From: Elusimicrobiaceae bacterium
GTDB lineage: Bacteria; Elusimicrobiota; Elusimicrobia; Elusimicrobiales; Elusimicrobiaceae
Assembly: GCA_016281355.1 (NCBI GenBank)
Contig: JAEEIL010000032.1
Location: forward strand, 62,001-126,000
DNA: 64,000 nt
Direction: 5' to 3'
The position numbers and the translations under genes were made by a program. The notes under the pieces are model-generated. The model did not search any database, had not been told where the DNA came from, and saw only the letters and a list, made by a program, of their open reading frames with translations. Below, piece after piece: positions 12,877 through 18,855 of this stretch; position 1 is the stretch's first letter, and each line of letters begins with the position of its first letter.

Positions 12877-13329
12877 ATGAAAAATACAAAAATAAAAAAA
12901 TATCTTAAAAGTTTTAATTTTATAGTTTATCTTATTTTGATTCTTTGTATTCTTGGCTTAGTCAGAAATATATTGTTTTTAAAAAACTTTCATGCACTTG
13001 GGAAAGATGCAAGCAATTTGTTTATTGCAATGATAGCAATATATTTTGCCCAAATAGTACTAATACTGGCAAAAAAATGGCAAGTATGGATAATCTCTTT
13101 GATTCAAGTAATATTTTGTATATATGTTTTCCCAGATTTTACAATTACCCCAATTAGCGCAGTTATAAAATTCGTATTTTTTAATAAAATGATAGAAGGC
13201 AACTATGCATGGGCAACTTTTATAAATTTTATGTTTATTTCTTTCGGTTTTAGTGCAGAAATGATAAAAACTTATTTACTTTATGTTTACTTTCCACGCG
13301 AAACAAAATCTATAACTGTAAATTCTTAA
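12877..13329 (+). CDS. Small integral membrane protein, unknown
   Basis: This 150-residue protein has about four hydrophobic helices (roughly 15-32, 45-65, 70-88 and 100-132) and a basic N-terminus (KKYLK). I recognise no family. It follows ddl by one base, so it is likely translated from the same mRNA. Its stop codon overlaps the stop of the convergent GNAT gene through a shared TTAA. No Shine-Dalgarno stands out other than purines at the end of ddl. Confidence 0.7.
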   Translation: MKNTKIKKYLKSFNFIVYLILILCILGLVRNILFLKNFHALGKDASNLFIAMIAIYFAQIVLILAKKWQVWIISLIQVIFCIYVFPDFTITPISAVIKFVFFNKMIEGNYAWATFINFMFISFGFSAEMIKTYLLYVYFPRETKSITVNS

Positions 13330-14423
13330 ATATTCTTTTTATAAATGCGGTAAGTCTTGGTTTTATAGCAACCGGTTTCTTGTACAACGGAGATTATGCC
13401 TTTATTGTCTTCCAAAAGCCAAGAAAGTTCTGCTTTATGCCAACCTTTTTTGACAGATTTATCAATAATTTCATTAACTACTAAAAGTTCAAGCCCGCGC
13501 CCACGATGATTTGGGTGCACACCGAGCATAAGCATACGGCAATCATCCATATTAAAATAGGCTTTTATTGCTTTAAAAAATTTACTGAAGCCGGAATTTT
13601 GTTGCCATTCTTTTAAAACTTTATTAAAGTTTGGTACGCAAATTGCAAAGGCGACGACTTCCCCTTTAACTTCACATATAGTAGTCATCTCCGTCTTGAC
13701 TATAGTTTTTAATTCTTTGGCGGTTTGTTTAATTTCGGCATCACTTATAGGTACAAAACCCCAATTTTGAGCCCAAGATTCATTATAAATCTTGCAAATT
13801 TTATCTACTTCTTCGTCAAAGTTCTTTAAATTTATAGGGCGAAAGGTAATATCTTTATTTCTTTTAAAACGTTCAATAAGTTTTTGCATTCGCGGAGTAT
13901 ATTCTTCTTTATCAGTACGTTCAAATGCCACTAGATCTTTTGCTTTTTCAAAACCGCAACTTTTTATAAGTTCATCATAATAAGAAAAATTATAGGGCAT
14001 CATTATAAATGGGTCTTTATCAAAATTATCAAGCAAAACACCGCAAGTATGGTTAGTGCTTGGGTTTACCGGACCTTGAATAATTTTACAGCCTTTTTGC
14101 CTGAGCCAAGCAGAAGCAGAAGCAAATAAAGTTTTGGCTGCTTTTGTATCGTTTATACAATCAAAAAAGCCGAAAAACCCTGTTTTATCTTGCCAATGCT
14201 TATTATGCGCCAAGTTCGTTAAGGCACAAATGCGGCCGATAATTTCCCCATCTTCATAGAGTAAAAAAAGAGCCCTTTCATTATTTTGCCAAAAAGGGTC
14301 TTTAGTTAAAAGTTTTATAAGATTACTTTTTAAATCAGTTATATAATGCGGACAACCTTTATAAAGTTTAAAAGGAAAATTAACAAACTTTTTTACATTT
14401 TTTGTTTCTATAACTTTAAACAT
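13326..14423 (-). CDS. GNAT-fold N-acyltransferase-like protein
   Basis: The 365-residue protein has a C-terminal GNAT-like acetyl/acyl-CoA domain (LGVHPNHRGRGLELLVVNEII, about 295-315) and an N-terminal segment with LYEDGEIIGRICALTN and PVNPSTNHTCGVLLDNF. It resembles the large YghO-type acyltransferases. Its start shares one base with the stop of the serine-palmitoyltransferase-like gene, so the two are translationally coupled. Caulobacter ceramide synthesis includes a separate N-acyltransferase acting after Spt. From this I infer that the present protein may acylate the long-chain amino product. I cannot verify homology to that enzyme. Confidence 0.75.
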   Translation of the reverse strand: MFKVIETKNVKKFVNFPFKLYKGCPHYITDLKSNLIKLLTKDPFWQNNERALFLLYEDGEIIGRICALTNLAHNKHWQDKTGFFGFFDCINDTKAAKTLFASASAWLRQKGCKIIQGPVNPSTNHTCGVLLDNFDKDPFIMMPYNFSYYDELIKSCGFEKAKDLVAFERTDKEEYTPRMQKLIERFKRNKDITFRPINLKNFDEEVDKICKIYNESWAQNWGFVPISDAEIKQTAKELKTIVKTEMTTICEVKGEVVAFAICVPNFNKVLKEWQQNSGFSKFFKAIKAYFNMDDCRMLMLGVHPNHRGRGLELLVVNEIIDKSVKKGWHKAELSWLLEDNKGIISVVQETGCYKTKTYRIYKKNI

Positions 14424-15610
14424 TATTTTATTATGCCAAGTTCGCGCCCAGCTTTAGTGAAAACTTCAATGATTTTATCAATTTGTTCGTCAGTATGTGT
14501 CGCCATTAAAGTAACACGCATCATGCATCTGTTTGGAGGAACAGCAGGCGGAATAACAGGTGTTGTAAAAATGCCACCTTCTAAAGTAGCGCGCCACATT
14601 TTAAAACATGTATCCATTTCACCGACGAAAACTGGCACTATCGGCGTTTGTGTTTTGCCGATATCAAAACCTGCTTTTTTAAAACCTTTTTTAAGACGTT
14701 CGGAATTAGCCCAAAGTTTATCTTTGCGACTCATATCGTCACTAATTAAATCTATCGCACGGGAAATTGACGCAACGGAAGCAGGTGGCAAAGCTGCAGA
14801 AAATATTTGGCTTCTTGCATTATGCCTAATATAGTGAATAATATCTGCATCCCCTACTACAAAACCGCCTACGCTTGCAAAAGTTTTTGAACAAGTACCG
14901 ACTACCAAATCAACTTCTTTATGTAAATTAAAATATTCACAAGTACCACGCCCGGTTTTACCTAAAACGCCTGTTGCGTGAGCATCATCAACAATAATTC
15001 TTGCACCGTATTTTTTTGCAAGTTTAACAATTTCCGGTAAATTGCAAATATCGCCTTCCATGCTAAAAACGCCGTCAACAACAATTAATTTGCCCTTTTC
15101 TTCCGGTATTTTGGAGAGGACTATTTCCAAATCCTTCATATCATTATGTTTGAAACGTATCATCTCCGCTTCGGAGAGTTTTACCCCATCTAAAATACTT
15201 GCATGGTCAAGTTTATCAACTATGGCGACATCACCCTTCTTAAGTAAACTTGAAATTACACCTAAATTCATCTGGTATCCGGCAGAAAATATTAACCCTG
15301 CCTCTTTACCTTTAAATTTGGCGAGTTTAGCTTCAAGTTCTTCTGCGGCAACGGTGTTACCGTTTAAAAATCTTGAACCTGCTGAACCTGTACCGTATTT
15401 GGAAACAGCTTCAAGGGCGGCTTCTTTCATTTTAGGATCATTTGCCAGGCCTAAATAGTTGTTAGAACCTGCCATGATATATTTTTTACCCTTAAGCATA
15501 ACTTCAGGCCCCTGGGCCGAAGAAATGGGCTGAAAATAGCCATAAATACCAAGTTCCATTAAACGTTTTGCGTCTTTAAAGTTTCTGCACTTTTCAAATA
15601 TATCTGCCAT
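14423..15610 (-). CDS. PLP-dependent alpha-oxoamine synthase, serine palmitoyltransferase-like
   Basis: This family condenses an amino acid with an acyl-CoA or acyl-ACP. The 395 residues include the SPT-type start YFQPISSAQG then AGSNNYLGL, LDHASILDG, DDAHATGVLG (PLP Asp), the Schiff-base lysine K242 in GTCSKTFASVGG, RHNARSQIFSAALPP and PAVPPNRCMMR. These variants match serine palmitoyltransferases better than Kbl or BioF; a separate Kbl with tdh lies at 50986-52170 and no other bio genes are near. It sits between hldE2 and the GNAT gene in an operon with accB and accC. A sphingolipid-type product is likely but unproven. Confidence 0.85.
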   Translation of the reverse strand: MADIFEKCRNFKDAKRLMELGIYGYFQPISSAQGPEVMLKGKKYIMAGSNNYLGLANDPKMKEAALEAVSKYGTGSAGSRFLNGNTVAAEELEAKLAKFKGKEAGLIFSAGYQMNLGVISSLLKKGDVAIVDKLDHASILDGVKLSEAEMIRFKHNDMKDLEIVLSKIPEEKGKLIVVDGVFSMEGDICNLPEIVKLAKKYGARIIVDDAHATGVLGKTGRGTCEYFNLHKEVDLVVGTCSKTFASVGGFVVGDADIIHYIRHNARSQIFSAALPPASVASISRAIDLISDDMSRKDKLWANSERLKKGFKKAGFDIGKTQTPIVPVFVGEMDTCFKMWRATLEGGIFTTPVIPPAVPPNRCMMRVTLMATHTDEQIDKIIEVFTKAGRELGIIK

Positions 15611-15636
15611 AATTTTACCTATATAAATATTTTACT

Positions 15637-16104
15637 TTATTGTAAAGATATTTTGTTAATTAAATTTGTTGTGGAACGCCCTTTAACTAAAGGGAACAAA
15701 ACCACACGACCTGCAAATTGTTCACCTACGACCTTTTTATTTTTATAATCTGCCCCTTTTACCAAGACATCAGGCCTTACAAGTCTTATAAGTTCAAGGG
15801 GTGTATCTTGGCTAAACAAACAAACTGCATCAACCGCGCCCAAGGATGCTACTACAAGTGCCCGATCGGATTGTTTATTTATCGGGCGTTTGGGCCCTTT
15901 TAAACGTTTGACAGAAGCATCACTGTTTAAACCAAGCACCAAAATATCGCCTTTACTTTTAGCAAATTCTATACTACTTACGTGGCCTGCGTGCAAGATA
16001 TCAAAACAACCGTTTGTAAAAACGATTTTTTTGCCTTGTGCTTTCGCTTTTTTAACGAAAGAAGCGAGTTTCGCACGGGTCATTATTTTACTTTTTGCTT
16101 TCAT
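15637..16104 (-). CDS. hldE2: D-glycero-beta-D-manno-heptose 1-phosphate adenylyltransferase
   Basis: This is the nucleotidyltransferase half of HldE, found here as a separate 155-residue protein (also called rfaE2 or hldC). It makes ADP-heptose for the LPS core. The motifs FTNGCFDILHAGHV (HxGH adenylyltransferase site), LVLGLNSDASVKRLKGPKRPI, PDVLVKGADY and GRSTTNLI are complete. The kinase half is not in the window. Its start overlaps the end of accC by 17 bases. Confidence 0.93.
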   Translation of the reverse strand: MKAKSKIMTRAKLASFVKKAKAQGKKIVFTNGCFDILHAGHVSSIEFAKSKGDILVLGLNSDASVKRLKGPKRPINKQSDRALVVASLGAVDAVCLFSQDTPLELIRLVRPDVLVKGADYKNKKVVGEQFAGRVVLFPLVKGRSTTNLINKISLQ

Positions 16105-17452
16105 TTAAAATTTCCTCTACCAAGGCGGTATTTGTTTGACCTTCCTGAAATTTTTTATTTTGTAAAATCAATTTATGAAAATCTAAAGTATTCTTGATGC
16201 CTTTGATTCTAAATTCATCCAAAGCCCTTTGCGCACGTTTTAAGGCTTGTTCTCTATTCGGTGCACTGATTATAAGTTTTGCAATTAAACTGTCATAAAA
16301 AGAAGGTATTTCATAACCTCCGTAAATGGCACTGTCTACCCTAATGCCTAAACCGTCCGGTGTGTGAAAATAAGTTACAAGCCCGGAATTAGGTAAAAAG
16401 TTTTGCTCATAATCTTCGGCATTAATTCTGAATTCTATGGCATGGCAATTTATTTTTTGTGCTTCGGTTTGTGTTAAAGTTAATGGTTGGTTTTGTGCAA
16501 TTTCCACTTGCATTTTAACAAGATCTACACCCCCGCAAACAGCTTCGGTGACAGGGTGTTCCACTTGCAAACGGGTATTAACTTCCATAAAATAAAAATT
16601 TTTATTTTCGTCCATCAAAAACTCAACTGTGCCTACGCCGCTATATTTGGCTTGTTTTACCAAAGCAACAGCCGCAGCAATTAATTTTTTACGGATTTCA
16701 GCCGTAACAAAAGGTGAAGGCGATTCTTCAATCAACTTTTGATTTTTGCGTTGCATAGAACAATCGCGTTCCGTAAATGCAACAACATTCCCTAAATTAT
16801 CCGCAGCAAATTGCACTTCTATGTGACGAGGATTAATTAAAAGTTGTTCAAAGTAAACATCATCATTACCAAATGCAATTTTAGCCTCTGCTTTAGCGGT
16901 TTCAAAAGCTGTTTCAAAAGCATCTTCGGTTTGGGCGACACGCATACCTCGCCCCCCGCCACCGAGAGCTGCCTTTATCATCAACGGGAACCCTATTTTT
17001 TTAGCTTCAAGCAAGGCATTGCCTTTAACAATACCGTCACTACCTTTAATTACCGGAACACCTGCTTTTATTGCAAGAGCCCGGGCTGCCGCTTTTTGGC
17101 CGAGTTTGGAAATTGCTTCGGCACTTGGCCCAATAAAATCGATACCTGCTGAAGTAACTTCTTTAGCGAAATCAGCATTTTCGGAAAGAAAACCATAACC
17201 GGGGTGAATTGCTTCCGCTTTCGTAATTTTTGCAGCGGCAATAATTGCATCAATATTTAAGTAACTTTCTTTGCTTTCAGCCGGACCTATACAAAGAGCT
17301 TCATCAGCTACAAGAACGTGGGCGGAAGTTTTATCTTCTTCAGAGTAAACCGCAACGGTTTTAATATCCATTTCTTTTAAAGTACGAATAATTCTTAAAG
17401 CAATTTCACCACGGTTTGCAACTAAAATTTTTGTATATTTTTTCTCTTTCAT
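16088..17452 (-). CDS. accC: Acetyl-CoA carboxylase, biotin carboxylase subunit
   Basis: AccC carboxylates the biotin carried by AccB at the expense of ATP, the first step of malonyl-CoA formation. The 454 residues match the family. Visible are LVANRGEIALRIIRT, HPGYGFLSENADFA, the ATP-grasp glycine-rich loop GGGGRGMR, ERDCSMQRKNQKLIEESPSP and EVNTRLQVEHPVTE. It follows accB by three bases. The neighbouring AccB has an atypical biotinylation site, yet AccC itself looks fully intact. The carboxyltransferase subunits accA/accD are not in the window. Confidence 0.96.
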   Translation of the reverse strand: MKEKKYTKILVANRGEIALRIIRTLKEMDIKTVAVYSEEDKTSAHVLVADEALCIGPAESKESYLNIDAIIAAAKITKAEAIHPGYGFLSENADFAKEVTSAGIDFIGPSAEAISKLGQKAAARALAIKAGVPVIKGSDGIVKGNALLEAKKIGFPLMIKAALGGGGRGMRVAQTEDAFETAFETAKAEAKIAFGNDDVYFEQLLINPRHIEVQFAADNLGNVVAFTERDCSMQRKNQKLIEESPSPFVTAEIRKKLIAAAVALVKQAKYSGVGTVEFLMDENKNFYFMEVNTRLQVEHPVTEAVCGGVDLVKMQVEIAQNQPLTLTQTEAQKINCHAIEFRINAEDYEQNFLPNSGLVTYFHTPDGLGIRVDSAIYGGYEIPSFYDSLIAKLIISAPNREQALKRAQRALDEFRIKGIKNTLDFHKLILQNKKFQEGQTNTALVEEILNESKK

Positions 17453-17455
17453 AAA

Positions 17456-17821
17456 TTAATCAATAAAAAATAAAGGTTGATTATATTCGACGTCTGTATC
17501 TTCTTTTATGGATATAGATTTTAATACGCCCGCTTTAGGGGCAAAGATATCTACTGTTTTTTTATGGCATTGCACAATACCTAAAAATTGGCCCTTTTTT
17601 AAAGTCATGCCTTCTTCCAATTTAGCTTTATCTTTACTACTTTTTGATTTGTAAATACCTACGGCCGGTGCAAGAACTTTAGTTAATTTGGAAGTATAAC
17701 TGTTAAAGGCGGTCTCCGCACTTCTAAATTCTACTGTAACCGGGCCCCGCTTGCAGATAAGTTCCTGCAAATCGGTAGTTTTGGCCCATTTGATAAATTC
17801 ATACAATGTCGCTGTATCCAT
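17456..17821 (-). CDS. accB: Biotin carboxyl carrier protein homologue with altered biotinylation motif
   Basis: The 121 residues resemble AccB: an N-terminal helix region, an APAVGIYKS strand and a C-terminal biotinyl domain ending in VEYNQPLFFID. The canonical EAMKMMNEI is replaced by QCHKKTVDI. The lysine (K87) is retained and lies 34 residues from the C-terminus, the same distance as in the E. coli protein, but both flanking methionines are lost. It stands three bases before accC, so it presumably serves it. Whether it is biotinylated is open. TATCAT seven bases before the ATG may be a leaderless promoter. Confidence 0.85.
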   Translation of the reverse strand: MDTATLYEFIKWAKTTDLQELICKRGPVTVEFRSAETAFNSYTSKLTKVLAPAVGIYKSKSSKDKAKLEEGMTLKKGQFLGIVQCHKKTVDIFAPKAGVLKSISIKEDTDVEYNQPLFFID

Positions 17822-17874: not shown

Positions 17875-18855
17875 CTACAGCTTAATACCGAGAATTTGTG
17901 TGGTAAGTTCTTGCGGGGTTTGATTCTTTAAGTCATTTTCATCTAATGATTTAAAGATTTGACGCGGTTTTTTGTTTTTACAAAAAATATCAAAAATATC
18001 TTCGCTTTTTTCTAAAGAAAAAGAAAGTTCTTTATTATTTTTAACTGTATAAGGTAAAAGTTTGGCGGTATGCAGAAAAATATCTGTGTCATTTAAATTT
18101 TGGGAAACAATTTCCTTAAATTCTTTACTGTCTTTGGCTACAATCTGTTGATAAGGTACATCAAATAATTGATCGCTTATAAAAGTAACTTTTGCACCGC
18201 AAATATGTAAAAAATCCGCAAGTGTTTTGCCAAAATGTGCATTTATACCTGCGGTTAAATAAAATTCACCGCATTGTTCTTTTATATTGCCGTCTGTAAT
18301 CAAAATATTTTTGCCTTTTAATTTTCCTTGAAATTGTAAAAGTTTTTTAAGTTCCTTATAAATTAAATCGATATCAGGTAATGCACCTTTCGGGGAATCT
18401 ATTACAATTGCTCCGCGTTTCCTTAAAGCGGAAATATTGGCTTGTGTTGCCGGGTTAAACCACATTCCGGGGTTCATGGCAGGTGCTATAAGCATAGGTT
18501 TTTGCCAAGCGCATAAAACTGATGTAAGTAAATTATCTGCCACGCCGTTAGCAACTTGGCTGATTGTATGTGCAGTGGCAGGGGAAAGCAAAAAGATATC
18601 CCCTTCCTCCGATAAACTTTTATGATTTTCATCAAATTTTTTAGGGTTAAATTGTGTTGTTAGAACTTCCGTTTTAGCTAAAGTTTGAAGTGTGGTTTTG
18701 GTGATAAAATTTAAAGCGTTTTCACTCGCTACAACACGGAAACGTGCGCCTTCCTTTTTAAGACGTTGAATTAATGGGCAGATTTTAAAACAAGTCAAAG
18801 CACCTGTTAAGCCCAAAACAATTATTTTACCTTCAAAAATATTCTGTTTTTCCAC
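17875..18855 (-). CDS. coaBC: Divergent CoaBC-like protein (phosphopantothenoylcysteine decarboxylase/synthetase)
   Basis: CoaBC makes 4'-phosphopantetheine in coenzyme A synthesis. The 326 residues are shorter than the usual 390-420. The flavoprotein half keeps SPATAHTISQVANGVADNLL, the PAMN motif (APAMNPGMW) and a His before it (NHKS). The flap cysteine normally in xACGxxGxGRM is missing (SPKGALPD). The synthetase half keeps an Asn in INAHFGK and a lysine in LEKSEDIF, but ADY is absent and the C-terminus is truncated. It may be a degenerate but working enzyme or have another role. It begins with GTG six bases after TATAAT. Confidence 0.7.
   Translation of the reverse strand: MEKQNIFEGKIIVLGLTGALTCFKICPLIQRLKKEGARFRVVASENALNFITKTTLQTLAKTEVLTTQFNPKKFDENHKSLSEEGDIFLLSPATAHTISQVANGVADNLLTSVLCAWQKPMLIAPAMNPGMWFNPATQANISALRKRGAIVIDSPKGALPDIDLIYKELKKLLQFQGKLKGKNILITDGNIKEQCGEFYLTAGINAHFGKTLADFLHICGAKVTFISDQLFDVPYQQIVAKDSKEFKEIVSQNLNDTDIFLHTAKLLPYTVKNNKELSFSLEKSEDIFDIFCKNKKPRQIFKSLDENDLKNQTPQELTTQILGIKL

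What the first reader, a model, noticed from the sequence alone, without database searches (positions are those of the whole stretch)
17456..17821. AccB with CHKK in place of the AMKM biotinylation motif
The biotinyl domain keeps the lysine at the same distance from the C-terminus (34 residues) as in E. coli, and is next to an intact AccC, but both methionines are changed and the surrounding EAMKMMNEI is QCHKKTVDI. The methionines are nearly invariant; substitutions mainly affect carboxylation. A second adjacent lysine is present. Either the BirA of this organism has changed, or the protein acts without biotin or takes lipoyl instead.
Basis: seen in the sequence. Interest (0 to 1): 0.55.

Follow-up and report, generated by a model that had tools for sequence, protein, structure and literature searches.

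The report
Bacterial AccB twin without biotin site
A small protein made next to the biotin carboxylase of fatty-acid synthesis has lost the site for attaching biotin in a large branch of the phylum Elusimicrobiota, while a second, normal copy keeps it, so it probably works as a biotin-free partner subunit much like the BADC proteins known from plants.

Summary
In detail: window 17456-17821 (-) encodes a 121-aa AccB-like protein with CHKK where E. coli has AMKM, three bases upstream of an intact accC. Named relatives place the genome in Elusimicrobiota. The change is not one odd protein. In 60 of 60 order genomes the accC-linked-type copy lacks AMK[MIV], and the biotin lysine itself is gone in 24 of 60. 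In 20 genomes of other classes the same gene still has [AT]MK[IVM] in 16 and arginine in 4. A second, stand-alone AccB was found in 57 of 60 order genomes and 39 of 44 chosen genomes; its motif is EAMK[VI] in 80 of 80 read. A tree separates stand-alone and accC-linked copies, with one main loss of the motif. The protein is under purifying selection (dN/dS 0.04-0.10), and its variability is highest at the former biotin hairpin. The genome has one AccC and no separate AccA or AccD match, but one MmdA/PccB-like carboxyltransferase.

Best reading: a non-biotinylated AccB paralogue kept as a partner of AccC, convergent with plant BADC. Binding and function are inferred, not shown. Biotinylation of K87 in this lineage is unlikely but not excluded. 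A changed BirA or lipoyl use is not supported.

The parts
17456..17821 (-). accB-like gene without biotinylation motif (called AccB2 here), 121 aa: N-terminal helix segment, short linker, biotinyl-type barrel with an AccB-like thumb stretch
17558..17569 (-). codons for C85-H86-K87-K88 at the position of AMKM; K87 aligns with the biotinyl lysine
   Evidence: alignment to E. coli AccB
16088..17452 (-). accC, biotin carboxylase, the only one found in the genome
15637..16104 (-). HldE-domain-II type adenylyltransferase (rfaE2), conserved next gene
14423..15610 (-). serine-palmitoyltransferase-like / BioF-family enzyme (under both curated cut-offs), conserved in the cluster
13326..14423 (-). GNAT acetyltransferase-family protein, conserved in the cluster
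17875..18855 (-). CoaBC-like flavoprotein upstream; among the loci compared, a homologue was detected only beside the CHKK/SHKK clade (4 of its 5 loci)

Best explanation
The protein is AccB2, the AccB of an accB-accC gene pair, which has lost biotin attachment and been kept as a non-catalytic partner of AccC. Biotin is carried by a second, stand-alone AccB (EAMKV) encoded elsewhere. AccB2 keeps the AccB barrel with its thumb stretch and an N-terminal helix segment. It most likely binds AccC (and perhaps the stand-alone AccB) and helps assemble or tune the AccC-AccB unit that feeds a single-chain MmdA/PccB-like carboxyltransferase, in the way plant BADC proteins do for plastid acetyl-CoA carboxylase. 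Shown here by computation: two AccB lineages, loss of the site in one, conserved linkage to accC, selection, fold. Inferred: lack of biotin in vivo, binding to AccC/AccB, the assembly or regulatory role, and that this carboxyltransferase is the partner.
For: accC-linked-type copy in the order: 0 of 60 with AMK[MIV]; residue at the biotin site K 36, S 12, N 4, G 3, A 2, R 2, T 1. Same class, other families: 24 of 30 read lack the M before the site; 3 AMKI, 2 CMKI, 1 AMQV. Other classes: 16 of 20 have [AT]MK[IVM], 4 of 20 [AT]MR[IV]. Stand-alone AccB: EAMK[VI] in 80 of 80 read (50; 30). It was found in 57 of 60 order genomes and with a strong match in 39 of 44 chosen genomes (three of the 44 were order genomes taken because they had failed). 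Tree of 116 sequences (33 of the 60 order copies, 30 class, 20 other classes, 32 stand-alone, E. coli): stand-alone 32 of 32 one clade (0.91), accC-linked 83 of 83 one clade (0.99), the 56 without that M one clade together with L134, which has an M but N at the biotin site (0.84). Without the motif columns the same groups appear (stand-alone 0.84-0.91, linked 0.82-0.84, loss clade 0.63-0.70). dN/dS 0.04-0.10 among five genomes against 0.05-0.08 for accC among four. Mean column entropy at the motif 2.80 bits in 83 sequences of the loss clade against 0.83 in 21 motif-bearing sequences, while N-terminal (1.59) and C-terminal (1.45) parts of the former stay conserved. Same strand and near accC in 58 of 60 order genomes (34 with a gap under 150 bases, 24 with 373-1979). 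Only one biotin carboxylase in the genome. Best PDB sequence match E. coli AccB 4HR7_B, E 2.6e-15; best Foldseek match 1bdo, TMt 0.85. Plant BADC: lacks AMKL, binds BC and BCCP, acts as glue (PMC11926652, passages).
Against: No interaction, expression or biotinylation data. 36 of 60 orthologues, including the window's own, still have a lysine at the site, so biotinylation cannot be ruled out from sequence in those. In 24 order genomes 373-1979 bases separate it from accC; in G044 and G056 accC was not found in the stretch taken. The N-terminal match to E. coli AccB is weak on its own (9.1 bits). The AlphaFold model rests on 20 sequences and the five models disagree in confidence (mean pLDDT 81.4 for the best, 57.5-71.0 for the others). 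dS is near saturation (0.74-1.88), which makes the dN/dS values rough. The stand-alone copy is under still stronger selection (0.007-0.026). The outgroup of the tree is a single sequence. One genome of the class, G129 (92% complete), has no match to either AccB profile or to AccC.
Confidence: 0.66

Rival explanations
1. K87 is still biotinylated in the window's lineage, so this is a second working carrier with a drifted motif.
For: K87 aligns exactly with the biotinyl lysine; a lysine is present in all 5 members of the CHKK/SHKK clade and in 36 of 60 order genomes; two BirA-type ligases in the genome. That changes of the methionines alone do not always abolish biotinylation is recalled knowledge.
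Against: Both methionines and, in the window, the preceding E are changed; lysine is lost in 24 of 60 orthologues; in the loss clade the motif is the most variable segment measured; the stand-alone AccB keeps EAMKV in the 30 order genomes read, the window's own included.
Confidence: 0.14
2. AccB2 is mainly an inhibitor or sensor rather than an assembly aid: it competes with biotinylated AccB for AccC and lowers carboxylase activity.
For: Same anatomy as the best explanation; plant BADCs were also described as inhibitors from in vivo studies (PMC11926652, passages); place beside the only accC.
Against: Presence in 60 of 60 order genomes with a mostly fixed place beside accC suits a standing subunit as well or better; no data separate the two.
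Confidence: 0.12
3. The protein carries another group on K87/K88 (for example lipoyl) or has an unrelated role.
For: The barrel family PF00364 also holds lipoyl domains; a protein that reads as a glycine-cleavage H protein is encoded in the genome, so lipoyl use is likely there.
Against: Lysine not conserved; AccB-like thumb stretch and best matches by sequence and fold to AccB biotinyl domains.
Confidence: 0.05
4. A decaying relic of accB after the stand-alone copy took over.
For: Loss of the catalytic motif in one copy of a pair.
Against: dN/dS 0.04-0.10; found in 60 of 60 order genomes; conserved N- and C-terminal parts.
Confidence: 0.03

Closest known systems
BADC proteins of plant plastid acetyl-CoA carboxylase (PMC11926652, passages seen)
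   Same: BCCP-like, no AMKL-type motif, exists beside a normal biotinylated BCCP and a separate biotin carboxylase
   Different: Bacterial, encoded next to accC, 121 aa; here the loss lies inside a bacterial AccB lineage. The paper calls BADC unique to the plant enzyme. Binding not tested; no BADC sequence was compared directly.
AccB (BCCP) of E. coli acetyl-CoA carboxylase
   Same: Barrel with thumb stretch, weakly matching N-terminal segment, lysine at the same distance from the end; place before accC (E. coli gene order recalled)
   Different: AMKM replaced by CHKK; below the TIGR00531 cut-off
Non-catalytic 'glue' subunits of certain bacterial acyl-CoA carboxylases (named in passages)
   Same: A non-catalytic subunit that helps assemble a carboxylase
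   Different: Nothing in those passages describes them as AccB-derived; no sequence comparison was made

Membership tests
AccB / BCCP | Biotinyl-domain fold with thumb | tested here: met
AccB / BCCP | [AT]MK[MVI]-type biotinylation motif | tested here: not met
   CHKK in the window; AMK[MIV] in 0 of 60 in the order
AccB / BCCP | Score over the TIGR00531 equivalog cut-off | tested here: not met
   50.1 vs 115.2 bits; note the stand-alone AccB also falls below it at 91.6
AccB / BCCP | Carries biotin in vivo | not testable with these tools
   needs protein
BADC | BCCP-like fold without the biotinylation motif, beside a normal BCCP | tested here: met
BADC | Binds biotin carboxylase and BCCP and affects holoenzyme assembly or activity | not testable with these tools
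   only genomic linkage to accC
BADC | Descent from plant BADC | not tested
   no BADC sequence was compared; the tree groups the protein with Elusimicrobiota accC-linked AccB that keep the motif, which points to an independent origin
Lipoyl domain | Conserved lipoyl-lysine | tested here: not met
   lysine absent in 24 of 60 orthologues; nearest folds are biotinyl domains

The most novel reading that the evidence does not exclude
Elusimicrobiota evolved, independently of plants, a BADC-like subunit: the accC-linked AccB lost biotin once at the base of a large clade (with further K-to-R and K-to-Q losses elsewhere) and became a fixed non-catalytic part of a carboxylase built from one AccC, a stand-alone biotinylated AccB and a single-chain MmdA/PccB-type carboxyltransferase without AccA or AccD.
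Probability: 0.6. Interest if true: 0.68.

Novelty: new variant of a known kind. Interest (0 to 1): 0.56.

Why it matters
Non-biotinylated BCCP-like subunits are described as unique to the plant plastid enzyme (PMC11926652, passages). A bacterial lineage in which several stages can be seen (EAMK kept, EAMR or EAMQ, motif erased) would give an independent test of why a carboxylase keeps a carrier that carries nothing. The proteins are small and bacterial, so they should be easy to make and mix. It also warns that an accB next to accC cannot be assumed to be the biotin carrier.

Tried and rejected
Changed BirA: rejected. Both ligase-like proteins pass the BirA ligase cut-off, and two other biotin domains of the genome keep EAMK.

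No second accB: rejected. One exists at G000:C16:40311-40784 with EAMKVFNEV.

Sequencing error or a one-genome oddity: rejected.

Clades driven by the motif itself: tested by removing those columns; the groups stay with lower support for the linked and loss clades.

A missing standard carboxyltransferase as a search failure: PF01039 and PF03255 rang in 12 of 14 control genomes each. PF01039 was found in 57 of 60 order genomes, missing in G009, G026 and G054, and gave a second protein in G043, G045, G055 and G058. The PF03255 (AccA) matches over the cut-off lie in the frames of those PF01039 proteins; one weaker match (G008:C7, a 250-aa frame) was not over the cut-off. accD was not searched with its own model.

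Literature: the listings showed no report of such a protein in Elusimicrobiota or of a bacterial BADC. Most subscription papers are not in that library. Passages of PMC3199775 and PMC11257099 were seen and gave nothing on this protein; PMC2681670 is not held.

Not done: a direct comparison with plant BADC sequences, complex modelling of AccC with AccB2, and a systematic search for the same situation in other phyla. The genome-contig scan kept the best 80 of 111 relatives; their titles bear Elusimicrobiota names (one Candidatus Avelusimicrobium) or only 'bacterium'.

Rows dropped: L136 (a fragment, genome G009) was left out of the entropy count, and L258, L266, L267, L272 and L277 (Q or R at the site) were left out of its motif-bearing set. 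Only 33 of the 60 order copies and 32 of the first 50 stand-alone copies went into the tree.

Full report
What is there. The window ORF 17456-17821 (-) is a 121-aa AccB-like protein reading QCHKKTVDI where E. coli AccB has EAMKMMNQI. K87 lies at the position of the biotinyl lysine with 34 residues after it. The accC gene follows after 3 bases and looks intact. The genome is 1.5 Mb in 46 contigs; it is placed in Elusimicrobiota by its named relatives. One relative, a single contig of 1,643,562 bases, is probably Elusimicrobium minutum Pei191; that size is recalled.

The genome's biotin parts. Four Biotin_lipoyl domains were found: an OadA/pyruvate-carboxylase-B-like protein with EAMKMEME, a stand-alone AccB with EAMKVFNEV, the window protein, and one that reads as a glycine-cleavage H protein (my reading, no family search). 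There is one biotin carboxylase C-domain, two BirA-type ligases, and one Carboxyl_trans match, a 531-aa protein nearest to mmdA (under that model's cut-off). It stands after a 2089-aa synthase and a gene that reads as a phosphopantetheinyl transferase (my reading). No AccA protein apart from this kind was found over the cut-off in 60 genomes of the order. Across 294 genomes of the phylum, 278 had a biotin carboxylase match; by my reading of that table 15 had more than one, leaving 263 with exactly one.

The accC-linked copy in relatives. It was found in 60 of 60 genomes of the order. At the four AMKM positions none reads AMK[MIV]; the biotin-site residue is K in 36, S 12, N 4, G 3, A 2, R 2, T 1. 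In 30 genomes of other families of the same class, 24 lack the M before the site; 3 read AMKI, 2 CMKI, 1 AMQV. In 20 genomes of other classes, 16 read [AT]MK[IVM] and 4 [AT]MR[IV]. These 50 outer genomes were not a random sample: 20 were picked from the hit list (L230-L249) and 30 were chosen to spread over families. In the order it lies on the strand of accC and near it in 58 of 60 genomes: 34 with a gap under 150 bases, 24 with 373 to 1979 bases. In the two wider gaps that I opened there is one gene for a 551- or 597-aa protein that begins like a zinc ribbon. Of the other loci, 21 of 22 (L230-L251, gaps up to 2174 bases) and 27 of 28 (L252-L279, gaps up to 150) have accC on the same strand nearby.

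The stand-alone copy. It was found in 57 of 60 order genomes; G010, G012 and G016, at 88, 69 and 64% completeness, gave only weak hits. It was found with a strong match in 39 of 44 chosen genomes; the five without were those same three, G281 (79% complete) and G129 (92% complete, which also lacks AccC and AccB2 matches). The motif was read in 80 and is EAMKV or EAMKI in all 80.

Tree and selection. With 116 sequences over the barrel region, stand-alone and accC-linked copies form two clades (local supports 0.91 and 0.99), and the 56 sequences without the M before the site form one together with L134, which has that M but N at the site (0.84). Without the motif columns the groups remain, with 0.63-0.70 for the loss clade. 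dN/dS among five close genomes is 0.04-0.10, like accC among four of them (0.05-0.08); the stand-alone copy is lower (0.007-0.026); dS is high (0.74-1.88), so these are rough. Among 83 sequences of the loss clade (59 order, 24 class) the former motif is the most variable segment measured (2.80 bits, against 1.45-1.89 for barrel, N- and C-terminal parts and 2.71 for the linker). Among 21 motif-bearing ones it is the most conserved (0.83).

Fold. AlphaFold2 gives an N-terminal helix followed by strands, mean pLDDT 81 for the best model, the other four lower. Foldseek ranks the E. coli biotinyl domain first (1bdo, TMt 0.85, 33% identity), and Arabidopsis BCCP1 is also listed (9a87). The family profile matches E. 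coli AccB 4HR7_B at E 2.6e-15; its N-terminal stretch (chain residues 21-58) adds only 9.1 bits and is not significant alone.

Reading. Plant BADC proteins are BCCP-like, lack AMKL, bind BC and BCCP, and are reported as inhibitors from in vivo studies and as assembly glue from in vitro reconstitution; the paper calls them unique to the plant enzyme (PMC11926652, passages only). The Elusimicrobiota protein has the same anatomy and context, with an apparently independent origin. The mechanism proposed, binding to AccC and assisting or tuning the AccC-AccB unit, is inference from anatomy and linkage. No binding data exist.

Limits. Lysine at the site in 36 of 60, including the window, leaves biotinylation possible in those. 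The outgroup is one sequence. Other phyla were not surveyed for the same situation.

Noticed in passing
window 13326-16104: Conserved cluster after accC: HldE2-type adenylyltransferase, serine-palmitoyltransferase-like enzyme and a GNAT-family protein, seen in six of six longer relative regions (L043-L048). It looks like a sphingolipid-type cluster (that link is recalled knowledge).
   Followed up: partly
window 17875-18855: CoaBC-like protein below its family cut-off (168.4 vs 219.7 bits) with a weak second domain; a homologue beside accB2 was detected in 4 of 5 CHKK/SHKK loci and in none of the other loci compared (short flanks).
   Followed up: partly
L042:507-1127 and L041:13623-14336 (G000:C24 and C22): Two BirA-type ligases; the second has GKGQYERTW in place of the usual GRGRxGRxW-like stretch (motif recalled).
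   Followed up: partly
L040:1228-9732 (G000:C18): The only carboxyltransferase found in the genome sits after a 2089-aa Pfa-like synthase and a phosphopantetheinyl transferase-like gene (my reading); a 'Type R' secondary lipid cluster in E. minutum is described in PMC3098273 (passages).
   Followed up: partly
L258, L266, L267, L272, L277: accC-linked AccB with Q (L258) or R (the other four) in place of the biotin lysine but the M before it kept, apparently further losses outside the main clade.
   Followed up: partly
L048:9621-11414 and L045:7584-9239: A 551-597 aa protein gene beginning like a zinc ribbon lies between accB2 and accC in the second family of the order.
   Followed up: no
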